Positions 6,395-16,311 of a stretch of 39,796 nucleotides of DNA are shown here, one piece after another. Below the pieces are notes generated by a model that worked only from the letters and a program-made list of their open reading frames with translations, was not told the DNA's origin and made no database searches. The stretch spans positions 1-39,796 of the forward strand of contig NCET01000088.1 of the NCBI GenBank assembly GCA_002280815.1, in the 5' to 3' direction. Numbering within the stretch: the first letter of the stretch is position 1; every line of letters starts with the position of its first letter. This DNA is from Flavobacteriales bacterium 32-34-25 (GTDB lineage Bacteria > Bacteroidota > Bacteroidia > Flavobacteriales > Flavobacteriaceae). A program made the position numbers and the translations under genes.

Positions 6395-6459
6395 TTACAA
6401 ATCTAACACAAGCCCTCTAGTTAGAAGAGGGGTATTTTGACATAATAAGGGGGGCAAAT
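6395..6459 (-). promoter_or_regulatory. PUL box, copy A: paired GGGG half-sites upstream of susC
   Basis: Two half-sites on the plus strand, GGGG at 6429-6432 followed by TATTTTG and GGGG at 6451-6454 followed by CAAAT, are exactly 22 bp apart (two helical turns). The left flank ACAAATCTAACACAAG is also present at copy B. The same arrangement occurs at 11020/11042 and 16282/16304. Each copy is upstream of a minus-strand gene of the same PUL. This is what a dimeric activator site, for example of an HTCS regulator, would look like; the regulator is inferred, not shown. Confidence 0.6.
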
Positions 6460-6692
6460 CCGAAATATTAACAAAAAACGATAATATTTTGCGTCAATGA
6501 TAAAAAAACAACAATAAATTTACACAACAATCAATTAATTAAAGGATTAATTGCGTAAAAAAACTCTATATAAATCACTATAATCCCAAATAAAAGTTAA
6601 AAAAAACAACTCTGATTAAGATTGAAATTATTTTTTTGACAATAAATTATCACAAAAAAGATATTCAGGACGATATGTCTCCATATTAAAAT

Positions 6693-7394
6693 CTAGTTAG
6701 ACTTAAAACTCCAAACCTGACCAATAGTTTCACCGCCTTTGTTATCTTTCACAACCACTTTCCAATAATATACTTTTGAGGTTTGCAAAGAGTTTACATC
6801 CAAAGCAGTCGTAGTAATTGAACTTGCTACTTTTGATGTAGGTGGATTATTCACATCTAAATATACATCATACGAAAGTAAATCAGCAACATCAGTATCA
6901 CTTGCCGTCCATTTCAATGTTGCAGATGTAGAAAAAATGGTTGCACTTAAATCAGGTGAGACTAATTGGGGCAAAAAAGGCAAATGATTTGACAAAGCCA
7001 CCCCTTCTGTATATAAACTATATGTTGCAGAATAATTACTTGAACTATTTTTACTATCGATAGCTTTTACTCTCCAATAATACGCTTTTCCTTTATCCAA
7101 TCCGACAGTAGTAGTATTTGACGAAACTTCAGCCGTTTTAACAATTTGAGTAAACTGATTGTCAGTAGCTACTTGAATTTGATAAACAATCGGATTTTTT
7201 TCAGTATCAGTTGAGACATTCCATTGAAAACTAATCGAATTATCAATACATAAATTATTGTTAGTTGGCGAGCTCAACACAGGAACACTTGGAGCAGTAT
7301 TTTTGGATTCTGGTGCCCCATCTCCACCACCACCGCAAGAAATCAATAAAGAACAAAGAGCAAGACTGGTTTTATATAAAATATTCTTCATCAT
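6693..7394 (-). CDS. Small lipoprotein with two fibronectin-III-like repeats
   Basis: This 233-aa protein has a short signal peptide and lipobox LLISC (Cys20) followed by GGGGDG, a glycine-rich stretch like the lipoprotein export signals that favour surface exposure in Bacteroidota. The rest is two repeats of about 95 residues, at roughly 35-125 and 135-233. Each has the Fn3-like pattern P-x-L-x-SP, W-x-x-S/A-x-D-T-D and YYW(R/K)V. The ATG overlaps the TAA of the upstream glycosidase gene by one base, so the two are translationally coupled. A second ATG follows directly and could also serve as start. Tandem Fn3-like lipoproteins of this kind are often surface glycan-binding or adhesion accessories. 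No catalytic motif is visible, and binding to the same glycan as the neighbouring enzyme is inference. Confidence 0.8.
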   Translation of the reverse strand: MMKNILYKTSLALCSLLISCGGGGDGAPESKNTAPSVPVLSSPTNNNLCIDNSISFQWNVSTDTEKNPIVYQIQVATDNQFTQIVKTAEVSSNTTTVGLDKGKAYYWRVKAIDSKNSSSNYSATYSLYTEGVALSNHLPFLPQLVSPDLSATIFSTSATLKWTASDTDVADLLSYDVYLDVNNPPTSKVASSITTTALDVNSLQTSKVYYWKVVVKDNKGGETIGQVWSFKSN

Positions 7395-10300
7395 TATTTT
7401 TTAATTATAGTTAAGCTTACTTCTTTATCTAAGTATACTTTTGCCAGATACACACCAACAGCTTCATTCTCGAGATTCAGTTCTACACTCTGATTTACAA
7501 CTAGATAAGTCTTTTTGGAAATTAATGTACCACTCACAGCATATAATTCTATGTATACTTCTTTTTTTGATGTAGGTACAGAAATTTGAAATGATCCTGA
7601 AGTTGGATTGGGATATGCAAAAATTCCTCCCATATCATCGACAAAACTTTTAGTGTAAATTCCTTCACAAACTTTGGCTGTTTTTACTTCCATTACATCA
7701 CCTGGCTTTGCATCCACTGTAAAGTTTGATGAATTGGTTTCAAATTGTGAAATACCATTAACCAGGATTTCAAAAGGGGCGGTTCCTTCTGTAATTTCAA
7801 CAACCATTTTATTGGAAGAAACAGTTGTTGATTTAGCGGTTATGGTTCCGCCTTTGGCTATTGTAACGGTATAACATTGTTGGAATATTTTCCCTGTAAT
7901 ACCAATACAAACAGTATAAGTTCCCGGAGCCAAATTGGGAATGCTTAAACTATTATTTACAAAATTATAGTTTGCATTGTTTATAGTAGCGGTATAATTA
8001 TAAGTTGCTACGCCACTAATACTAATTTCTCCATTGTTTTTATTCGCACAGGTTTCTGATTTAGTTTCAATTGAAAAATTATTGTAGGGAAGATTAAATG
8101 GTGTAATACTAATCGTAACTGTAACGACATTACCATCAATAGTGCCGTCATTCGCTTTATACGTAAAACTATCTGATGTCGTTTCAGAACCATTGTGAGT
8201 ATAATTAAAAGTCCCATTACTATTCAACATCAATGTTCCATTGGTCACATTTGAAACTAAAATGGCTGTCAAAGTATCATTATTAACATCTGTATCATTG
8301 GCAAGTACAGTCGTTGCCTCTCCTACTAATATAATTGCTGACCCAGCTTTTTCCTTAACAACAATTTGTTCGGCTACTGCTATTGGTGCTACATTTGAAA
8401 TCTGGTCAATTTCGTTGGCAGACAATGCATAATTGTACACCCTGAAATCATCTACATTACCATTAAATAATGGATCAGGGTATTGACTACGTCCGATGTA
8501 ATTCAATACGGGTTTAAAATCCAAAGGTTTTATAGTTACAGTACTAGATTCAGCTACCATTAGGCCATTTACATACATTCGCGCGCCAGTTGCCCCTAGT
8601 GTCACCGCAACATGTGACCATTTTCCCGCAGCTAATGCTGGTGCATTCAAACCTTGTTCTGCACTTCCATTCTTGATACCAAAATACAATTGATTCGTTC
8701 CTGATTTAGGTGTTAAAAACATATACTCCGTCTCACCGTTTCCAAAATCGAAGATTCGCTGCCAATTAGCTCCTCCTTGCCAGTTAACCCAGGTTGCAAC
8801 TGTAATCTCTTGCTGATTTACCAAAGTCGAAGGCAATTGCACGAAGGCATTTGTACCGTTTAATGCTATTGCTTTGGAATTGCTACTTACACCATTAACA
8901 AATGTAGCTCCACCTAATGTAGCACTATGATTCAGGTTAACAGATTGATCAAGGGTATTTCCCTCAAATTGCAACTGAGCTACGAGGACATTGCTACCAG
9001 TAGTAGTTGCAGTAGCTTCGTTTGAGTAAGCAGATCGATTCAATGATTTATCTATCGCTTTGATTTTATAAAAATAGGTTCCCGTTGTAGTAGCGGTATT
9101 ATCAACAAAAGCCGTAGAGGTTATGTTACGAGCTATTGTATTGTAAGGCCCTGCTACTGATTCTGAACGATAAATAGTATATCCAGCAACATCAGATTCC
9201 GGGCTTTCCGACCAATCCAATAGGATAGATTCAGCTTTTGCCGTAGCAACTAAATTACTGGGTGCACTAGGAGAAACAAATTCAATTGGTGCTCCTACAG
9301 CTAACAATCGCCATTGCTGATTAAATCCTCCATTTTTTTCCCATTGCTGAATGTTTCCACCGTTGGCAATACTAGAGTTGTCTACATCCAGGCATTTTGC
9401 ACTATGGCGGCTACGAATATAAAACCAGCCGTCTTCGGCATAGTCAAAGTACCATTGCTGGTTGCTGCTTTTAACATTATCCCATACGATGATATTACCA
9501 CCATTATCCAATGAAAAATTAATAATATCCGGTGATTTCCCGCTGTATGCCGAAGAAAGGGTGAAATAGCTAAAATCACCGCCCACTCTGGAGTCAACCG
9601 GAGTTACATCCCATTGTTGATAAGTAGCACCTGAATAAGTACCTTGTTGAACATTGACCCCTCGATCTATTGAGCCACCTGCCACTTCCATCACTTTACC
9701 ACTGTTACGGTTTACCAATACGTAACGACCGTTGATTACTGGCTGAATGTCTTCTCCCCAACTCACTTTTACCATTTGCTCGGCATTAGTTTGTCCTTGC
9801 TGATAGCCAGTGCCACCGGATAATACCATAGTATATTCGCGTTGTGGTCCATAACCATCATAATATACGTCTCTTTCTTTTGAAACAAATCGATATGTCG
9901 TTGTAGCTGATTGCCGCTCAGATGTCCCACCAAAAAGTTGCACTTTACCATCAAGATTTCTATAAACTGAAGCGGCAGTCCAATTAGGTCGATGTTCAGC
10001 ATAACCTAATCTCACACCATCACTAGCCTTAACGAACTCACCTCTTGCTAACTCCGCTGTACCCCACCAAATCCCTGTTTGCAATCCATATTCGACACCC
10101 ACCATCGCTTCCATAACATTATGTAATTCATCATTGGTGGCATGATGACCGTTAGCTCTCACCGTTTGATAAAAATTAGCATAATTATCAAAACTACCTG
10201 CAAGTTGATGAGTATTCCCTTCATCCAATCTATCCTTTAATTGGTTGTACCAAACCAAAGCCTGATCATTATTTAATGTATTACCTCCAGAAATACGGAT

Positions 10301-15900: not shown

Positions 15901-16102
15901 AGTTTCCATTTAAACTTTGATACAATTCTGATTTTTGAGGATTGTTAGTTTTTAACTCCGCTTCATTACTAAATAACAAAAAGGAACTTCTTCCAGATTC
16001 TTTTCCTCTATCTAAAACTTGAGGATTTTCCCATTCATTAGTCTGAGCAAAATTAATTTGCAAACTTAAAAACAGAGCAAGCGACAGTACAACATTTTTC
16101 AT
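12983..16102 (-). CDS. GH2 beta-galactosidase (LacZ type), secreted
   Basis: This intact 1039-aa protein has an N-terminal signal peptide ending NFAQ, so it is exported, probably to the periplasm. Domain order is as in LacZ: a sugar-binding jelly roll ([27 protein letters not shown]), immunoglobulin-like domains, the TIM barrel, and a C-terminal small-chain domain ([29 protein letters not shown]). The acid/base is Glu477 in SLGNECGNG and the nucleophile Glu540 in [27 protein letters not shown] and ANIETHGM are also typical. It releases terminal beta-galactose from imported oligosaccharides. It has its own upstream region with PUL box C and its own terminator, so it is a separate unit co-regulated with the susC and clan-A enzyme units. 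Confidence 0.96.
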
Positions 16103-16278
16103 TTAATTCTCTTTATATTACTTGGATTTCAAAATTTAAAATTTCAGAAAATTTATTCATAATTGACTTTATTACACTATTGAAAAAAAATATTCAAAAA
16201 AAATACTTTAACACAAAATATAAAGCCAAATAATCAACAATATCTAAATCACAAATTTAAACAACACCACAAAAGAGA

Positions 16279-16311
16279 TGAGGGGTATTAAGATAAAATA
16301 ACGGGGGTAAA
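16279..16311 (-). promoter_or_regulatory. PUL box, copy C: paired GGGG half-sites upstream of the GH2 gene
   Basis: GGGG at 16282-16285 (followed by TATTAAG) and GGGG at 16304-16307 (followed by TAAATTG) are again 22 bp apart, about 180 bp before the GH2 start. The flanks agree less with copies A and B than the half-sites do, which points to the half-sites as the selected part. The remaining noncoding sequence between 16103 and 16463 is A/T-rich with nothing else I can assign. Confidence 0.6.

What the first reader, a model, noticed from the sequence alone, without database searches (positions are those of the whole stretch)
6395..16311. One regulatory box with exact 22-bp geometry in front of three PUL transcription units
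Upstream of susC (6429/6451), the clan-A glycosidase (11020/11042) and the GH2 gene (16282/16304) there are two GGGG-led half-sites, followed by T(A)TT.. and (T/C)AAAT, always 22 bp apart and in the same orientation to the gene. Copies A and B also share about 16-20 bp on the left flank. This geometry fits a dimeric activator bound on one face of the helix and defines a regulon across separate units of one PUL. I know of no named site with this consensus.
Basis: partly seen in the sequence, partly recalled or inferred. Interest (0 to 1): 0.65.

Follow-up and report, generated by a model that had tools for sequence, protein, structure and literature searches.

The report
Sugar-sensor operator; its regulator gene truncated
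Three sugar-digestion gene units in a Flavobacterium share a real, precisely spaced activator-and-promoter site that related bacteria keep next to one particular sugar-sensing regulator, and in this genome assembly that regulator gene is cut down to a stub.

Summary
The composite occurs at A, B, C and at a fourth place on contig C523, which overlaps the window by 99 nt. A model built without the window finds no other strong match in the 4.04-Mb assembly. All 29 Flavobacterium loci fetched with the orthologous hybrid two-component system (HTCS) carry at least two model matches: 61 in all, outside ORFs and on the HTCS strand. In 398 genus genomes, 24 of 24 with the HTCS have the site, against 4 of 374 without. 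Of 50 more distant HTCS loci, 32 carry the repeat just downstream of the HTCS. Best reading: an AraC-type HTCS dimer site in class II position. Direct-repeat HTCS motifs are a known kind (B. thetaiotaomicron), so this is a new member with an unusually well-defined promoter geometry. The twist: the window's own HTCS has lost all but about 112 residues through a deletion of about 5 kb, so the sites lack their cognate regulator in this assembly. Binding itself is untested.

The parts
6396..6461 (-). Site A (susC promoter): distal CCCC 6451-6454, proximal CCCC 6429-6432, -7 box TAGATTTG 6398-6405
   Evidence: model R1 47.2 bits
10987..11052 (-). Site B (promoter of LamG/ricin-lectin protein): distal CCCC 11042-11045, proximal 11020-11023, -7 box TAGATTTG 10989-10996
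   Evidence: R1 45.2 bits; counterpart before the LamG ortholog in F. undicola (L059 16741-16806, proximal box there only CCC)
16251..16314 (-). Site C (GH2 promoter): distal CCCC 16304-16307, proximal 16282-16285, -7 box TAAATTTG 16252-16259
   Evidence: R1 50.0 bits; ortholog in G005, L031 6441-6496
12428..12814 (-). Remnant of the cognate HTCS gene: about the first 112 residues, fused to the last 18 residues of DUF2264; 27-bp internal tandem duplication
12467..12486 (-). Deletion junction: 20 bp aligned to both the HTCS and the DUF2264 gene of G005; about 5 kb missing between them
12983..16102 (-). GH2 (beta-galactosidase type), target unit of site C
11242..12406 (-). GH88-family gene, split by a 10-bp tandem duplication (frameshift)
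6693..10888 (-). LamG/ricin-lectin/Big_9 protein with sorting tail, and fn3 protein, target unit of site B
2849..6073 (-). SusC (TonB-linked outer membrane protein; no STN domain matched), target of site A
867..2837 (-). SusD
1..843 (-). DUF4959/DUF5126 protein, continues on contig C523 (99-nt overlap), which carries the fourth site at C523:2083-2148

Best explanation
The box is the operator of this PUL's own hybrid two-component system (Reg_prop/Y_Y_Y sensor, HisKA, REC, AraC-type HTH_18). On sensing an oligosaccharide, a phosphorylated HTCS dimer binds two ATTTACCCC-type half-sites in tandem, about two helix turns apart on one face of the DNA. The proximal half-site lies at about -35 to -39 and the distal at about -57 to -61 of the predicted start. 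The dimer therefore occupies the -33 region and recruits sigma-A RNA polymerase at TAnnTTTG, a class II arrangement like AraC on araI1-araI2. At least four units of one PUL would respond together: GH2; LamG protein; susCD and partners; and the unit starting with a 391-aa ORF and GH43 on C523. Shown here by sequence: the composite site, its near-fixed geometry, its restriction to this PUL, its linkage to the HTCS, and truncation of that HTCS in this assembly. Inferred: binding, activation, phosphorylation dependence, inducer, and that the sites now lack their normal activator.
For: Chance control. Own genome: R1, trained without the window, gives A, B, C (E 1e-12 to 4e-11) and C523:2083-2148 (2.2e-9); next 0.18. 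Ortholog loci: the strict pattern finds 35 sites in 27 of 29; R1 finds 61 with E below 1e-4 in 29 of 29 (35 were training sites, 26 not), all on the HTCS strand. None of the 61 overlaps an ORF of 100 aa or more on either strand, and 61 of 61 have TAnnTTTG at the model's end; they lie 75-333 bp before the next ORF. In the pattern scans, periods 20-25 of 8-40 are filled, peak 22-24, and gaps 21-23 of 10-44. Co-occurrence in 398 genus genomes: 24 of 24 HTCS-positive and 4 of 374 HTCS-negative, Fisher 1e-34; 51 of 51 sites of HTCS-positive genomes on the HTCS contig. Distant HTCS loci: 32 of 50 have CCCC repeats at period 20-23 within 600 bp downstream of the HTCS, plus strand; none on the minus strand; 100 shuffles mean 2.2, max 5. 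24 of those 32 have a relaxed -7-like box at 21-24 nt, one at any other gap of 5-59. HTCS domains.
Against: No binding, footprint, start-site or expression data. Boxes are not perfect in all 61: the proximal CCCC is intact at gap 22 or 23 in 51, only three C in 10; of the 51, 35 have a distal CCCC at period 21-23 and 16 do not. 4 genus genomes carry the site without the orthologous HTCS (G000, G088, G096, G184). 18 of 50 distant HTCS loci lack the repeat in the 600 bp examined; of the 32 with it, only 3 have strict TAnnTTTG. Training loci and searched genus genomes overlap, so the 24 of 24 is not independent of training; that searches drew the same 398 genomes is taken from their shared handles. 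A strict phylum-wide pattern was not enriched: 22 of 395 genomes matched, against about 39 with hits to the reversed control, counted by eye. A weak match at C507 lies by heparinase-type and galactosidase genes.
Confidence: 0.87

Rival explanations
1. The sites are read by another regulator, for example the C112-type HTCS paralog, so the regulon in this genome is rewired rather than orphaned.
For: C112-type loci have a related operator, AATTTgACCTCC-22-AATTTACCCCTC with a -7-like box. G088 and G184 keep a site without the orthologous HTCS but encode another HTCS with the helix SHSSLYKK.
Against: The nearest HTH found in G000 is only 48% identical, with a changed recognition helix (SHRTLYTK against SHSLVYKK), and C112's own distal half-site differs. 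In HTCS-positive genomes all 51 strong sites are on the contig of the orthologous HTCS.
Confidence: 0.25
2. The HTCS deletion is an assembly artefact and the real genome has an intact HTCS.
For: 593 contigs, completeness 90.35%. The nearby GH88 frameshift and the HTCS tandem duplication could be assembly errors.
Against: The contig runs through the junction with synteny on both sides and a 20-bp stretch that aligns to both. No HTCS body (best other 38%) or DUF2264 body (best other 26%) is elsewhere in the assembly. G088 lacks the same two genes between GH2 and GH88.
Confidence: 0.3
3. The three boxes are alike only because one promoter segment was duplicated, not because a regulator reads them.
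For: A and B are 80% identical over 64 bp and share a further 32-bp leader block; A and C are 72% identical over 85 bp.
Against: Across the 35 aligned ortholog sites the boxes are the most constant columns while spacers vary. Outgroups at 37-43% HTCS identity keep the geometry.
Confidence: 0.05
4. An ECF sigma/anti-sigma pair or a SusR-like regulator drives the PUL and the CCCC boxes are its promoter or operator.
For: SusR motifs are also direct repeats, and ECF systems are named as possible PUL controllers (PMC3878776, abstract and passages).
Against: The downstream element is the sigma-A box TAnnTTTG, SusC shows no STN domain, no ECF or anti-sigma gene appeared among the window and C523 ORFs scanned, and sites track an HTCS.
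Confidence: 0.03

Closest known systems
HTCS DNA motifs of Bacteroides thetaiotaomicron (Ravcheev et al. 2013, PMC3878776; passages read)
   Same: AraC-type HTCS regulators; two direct repeats, average 21 bp apart; a dimer on one side of DNA proposed; one motif before several operons of one locus.
   Different: Here the sequence is ACCCC-type, in Flavobacterium and other Bacteroidota families; the repeat is held 22-23 nt from TAnnTTTG; the regulator is truncated in the window. The logos are in a figure I could not see, so identity with one of the Bacteroides motifs is not excluded.
AraC at araBAD (araI1-araI2; PMC4760080, passages read)
   Same: Two operators for an AraC-type HTH close to the promoter; binding at araI2 recruits RNA polymerase.
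   Different: Different sensor and signal (propeller sensor and phosphorelay instead of arabinose binding by AraC); sigma-A of Bacteroidota. The 21-bp direct-repeat spacing of AraC is recalled, not read.
Bacteroidota sigma-A promoter, TAnnTTTG at -7 (PMC7366714 and PMC9723704, passages read)
   Same: All 61 ortholog-locus sites and A, B, C contain TAnnTTTG.
   Different: The -33 region is occupied by the activator half-site; PMC7366714 notes that no -33 motif was found in F. johnsoniae.

Membership tests
HTCS operator | Two direct-repeat half-sites about 21 bp apart | tested here: met
   Period 22 in the window; mostly 22-23 in relatives
HTCS operator | Located upstream of PUL units encoded with an HTCS of AraC-type output domain | tested here: met
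   29 of 29 ortholog loci; HTCS has HisKA, REC, HTH_18. In the window itself the HTCS is truncated
HTCS operator | Site presence tracks the HTCS across genomes | tested here: met
   24 of 24 against 4 of 374; training overlap noted
HTCS operator | Bound by the HTCS output domain | not testable with these tools
   needs a shift or footprint assay
HTCS operator | Same consensus as a published HTCS motif | not testable with these tools
sigma-A (TAnnTTTG) promoter | TAnnTTTG at -12 to -5 of a mapped start | tested here: inconclusive
   Box present at a near-fixed distance; no mapped start
ECF sigma/anti-sigma PUL control | SusC with N-terminal STN domain and an ECF/anti-sigma pair nearby (recalled definition) | tested here: not met
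   No STN in SusC, no such genes among the ORFs scanned

The most novel reading that the evidence does not exclude
A PUL-wide regulon caught just after losing its regulator: four intact HTCS-type promoters persist after deletion of the HTCS, and another species (G088) also lacks the HTCS while keeping a site. In addition, the HTCS family carries a readable half-site code: the helix SHSxxYKK goes with ACCCC/ACCCC, and SHRTLYTK goes with ACCTCC-like/ACCCC, with the same repeat-to-minus-7 geometry.
Probability: 0.4. Interest if true: 0.6.

Novelty: new member of a known kind. Interest (0 to 1): 0.47.

Why it matters
HTCSs are a major class of PUL regulators in Bacteroides (PMC11253607, abstract). 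In the passages I read, their operators are computational predictions, with gel shifts on promoter fragments for two of them (PMC11253607), and are not tied to a promoter element. Here one operator is placed against the -7 box in dozens of species and linked to one HTCS clade. This makes recognition helix, half-site sequence and promoter spacing testable with one protein and a 70-bp probe, and gives a search model for assigning PULs to sensors. The truncated HTCS offers a natural test of what happens to a regulon without its sensor.

Tried and rejected
Strict phylum-wide pattern ACCCCYTT-N13-15-ACCCCYT: 22 of 395 genomes matched, against about 39 genomes with hits to the reversed control, counted by eye, so not enriched; a phylum-wide HTCS consensus was dropped. 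The pattern also misses the window's own sites.

The strict composite pattern found nothing in ortholog loci L076 and L079; R1 later found two sites in each. Of the 7 pattern hits in the 50 distant loci, I judge the L095 minus-strand hit to be chance.

A direct-repeat search for C112-type loci that relied on strict TAnnTTTG found nothing convincing; their operator appeared only by alignment.

The C507 place was considered as a fifth member. It fits the loose composite pattern, but R1 matches only the repeat half (E 0.18) and it lies before an alpha-galactosidase fragment; not counted.

Autoregulation of the HTCS from site C was considered. A terminator-like hairpin lies between GH2 and HTCS in G005, so I do not claim it.

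Checks that changed first counts: the window/C523 overlap is 99 nt, not 100; an earlier non-coding test saw only plus-strand ORFs and was repeated on both strands; an earlier -7 count in distant loci kept only the first match per locus and was repeated for all gaps.

Paper searches for this motif (listings and abstract starts seen, passages of six papers read) showed no description of it. Most subscription papers are not in that library.
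Full report
OBSERVATION. The genes lie on the minus strand, so in gene sense each is CCCC-N18-CCCC. That pattern occurs three times in the 39,796-base window and nowhere else on either strand; shuffles average 0.23 and none of 100 reaches three.

Downstream of the proximal CCCC, after 23, 23 and 22 nt, stands TAGATTTG, TAGATTTG and TAAATTTG. All fit TAnnTTTG, the -7 box of the main sigma factor of Bacteroidota (PMC7366714 and PMC9723704, passages). The 'shared left flank' of A and B contains this box. The composite is found three times, against a shuffle mean of 0.01. 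F. psychrophilum places the box at -12 to -5. On that scale the proximal CCCC lies at about -35 to -39 and the distal at -57 to -61. The predicted starts are 6393, 10984 and 16247 (computed by hand from the coordinates).

OWN GENOME. A loose form of the composite gives five distinct places in the 4.04-Mb assembly and none for the reversed control pattern. A sequence model (R1) built from 35 sites of relatives, with none from the window, gives four strong matches: C, A, B and contig C523:2083-2148 (E 2.2e-9). The next match has E 0.18. C523 starts with 99 nt identical to the window's end that carries the DUF4959 gene. It continues the same PUL: a DUF4998/DUF5013 gene, the fourth site, a 391-aa ORF, GH43, a 327-aa ORF, DUF4488, GH2, aldose epimerase and a galactokinase-like gene. 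So the regulon is one PUL with at least four units.

THE REGULATOR. The closest relative with the PUL, G005 (SusC 89%; a contig of the same length, 721,830 bases, is named F. flevense), has GH2, a 1366-aa HTCS, DUF2264, GH88 and susC in a row. It has one site before GH2 and one before susC. In the window the HTCS is reduced to about 112 residues, joined to the last 18 residues of DUF2264. About 5 kb is missing, with 20 bp at the junction that align to both flanks. The rest of the HTCS and of DUF2264 is not elsewhere in the assembly: best others 38% and 26%. A 27-bp tandem duplication in the remnant and a 10-bp duplication that shifts the GH88 frame point to decay, or to assembly errors. The assembly is 90.35% complete in 593 contigs, so I put about 0.7 on a real deletion.

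ORTHOLOGOUS LOCI. One scan kept the best 79 loci out of 368 relatives: 29 Flavobacterium loci with the HTCS at 75-100% identity, and 50 loci at 37-43%. The strict pattern finds 35 sites in 27 of the 29, and 7 in the 50. R1 finds 61 with E below 1e-4 in 29 of 29, at least two each: 35 training sites and 26 new ones, all on the HTCS strand. None overlaps an ORF of 100 aa or more on either strand, and all 61 have TAnnTTTG at the model's end; they lie 75-333 bp before the next ORF. With the period free (8-40), counts appear only at 20-25, with a peak at 22-24; with the gap free (10-44), only at 21-23. Part of the spread comes from C runs longer than four. The boxes are not perfect everywhere: the proximal CCCC is intact at gap 22 (47) or 23 (4), and has three C in 10; of the 51, a distal CCCC stands at 21 (2), 22 (17) or 23 (16), and 16 lack one. 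Site B has its counterpart before the LamG ortholog of F. undicola; that promoter is 92% identical to B.

CO-OCCURRENCE. In 398 genomes of the genus, R1 with E below 1e-6 marks 28 genomes, and the HTCS sensor part marks 24. All 24 are among the 28 (Fisher 1e-34). Training loci overlap with these genomes, so the 24 of 24 is partly circular; the 370 double negatives are not. That both calls drew the same 398 genomes is taken from their shared handles. All 51 strong sites of HTCS-positive genomes are on the HTCS contig, 49 of them within 8.6 kb. The four exceptions are the window's genome; G088, where GH2, site and GH88 remain while HTCS and DUF2264 are not between them; G096, a 3.5-kb contig of a 75%-complete genome; and G184, with a site before a susC of 26% identity.

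DISTANT RELATIVES. In 32 of the 50 distant loci (Chitinophaga, Niastella, Paradesertivirga and others) a CCCC repeat of period 20-23 lies within 600 bp downstream of the HTCS gene, on its strand; none on the other strand. Shuffled sequence gives a mean of 2.2 and a maximum of 5. In 24 of the 32 a relaxed -7-like box follows 21-24 nt later, and one locus has such a box at any other gap from 5 to 59; strict TAnnTTTG is present in only 3. The other 18 lack the repeat there. Among them are six C112-type Flavobacterium paralogs, whose helix mostly reads SHRTLYTK instead of SHSxxYKK. Several other loci without the repeat do have SHSxxYKK, so the link of helix and repeat is not strict. The C112-type operator is related but altered: AATTTgACCTCC-22-AATTTACCCC in five loci, with variants in G005 C33 and G000 C112. 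This suggests a recognition code but rests on few clades.

NEGATIVE RESULT. A strict ACCCC repeat is not enriched across the phylum: 22 of 395 genomes, against about 39 with hits to the reversed pattern. The motif belongs to an HTCS clade, not to Bacteroidota at large.

MECHANISM AND STATUS. The best reading is a class II-type activator site for an HTCS dimer. Shown: anatomy, geometry, restriction, linkage. Inferred: binding, activation and signal. GH2, GH43, GH88 and galactose genes suggest a galactose-containing plant polymer; this is inference only. In the window's strain the regulon probably lacks its normal activator. Takeover by another HTCS (C112 type) is not excluded. Direct-repeat HTCS motifs are known from B. 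thetaiotaomicron (PMC3878776, passages), so the finding is a new, unusually well-defined member of a known kind.

Noticed in passing
window 11242-12406: GH88-family gene is split by a 10-bp tandem duplication relative to G005.
   Followed up: partly
window 12428-12814: The HTCS remnant carries a 27-bp in-frame tandem duplication.
   Followed up: partly
L182 15787-20000 and L183 1-547 (G088): GH2 and GH88 adjacent without HTCS and DUF2264, with the GH2 site kept; a paralogous HTCS with helix SHSSLYKK is encoded elsewhere in that genome (L212).
   Followed up: partly
L132 14436-14530, L133, L134, L135, L130, G005 C33, G000 C112: Related operator AATTTgACCTCC-22-AATTTACCCC (variants in the last two) with a -7-like box downstream of a different HTCS paralog group.
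   Followed up: partly
window 25556-36559: Run of long minus-strand ORFs with almost no Pfam matches (a glycine-rich domain and weak Ig hits only); possibly large surface proteins in pieces.
   Followed up: no
L031 9797-9827: Terminator-like hairpin between GH2 and HTCS in G005, which argues that the HTCS may be transcribed apart from GH2.
   Followed up: no
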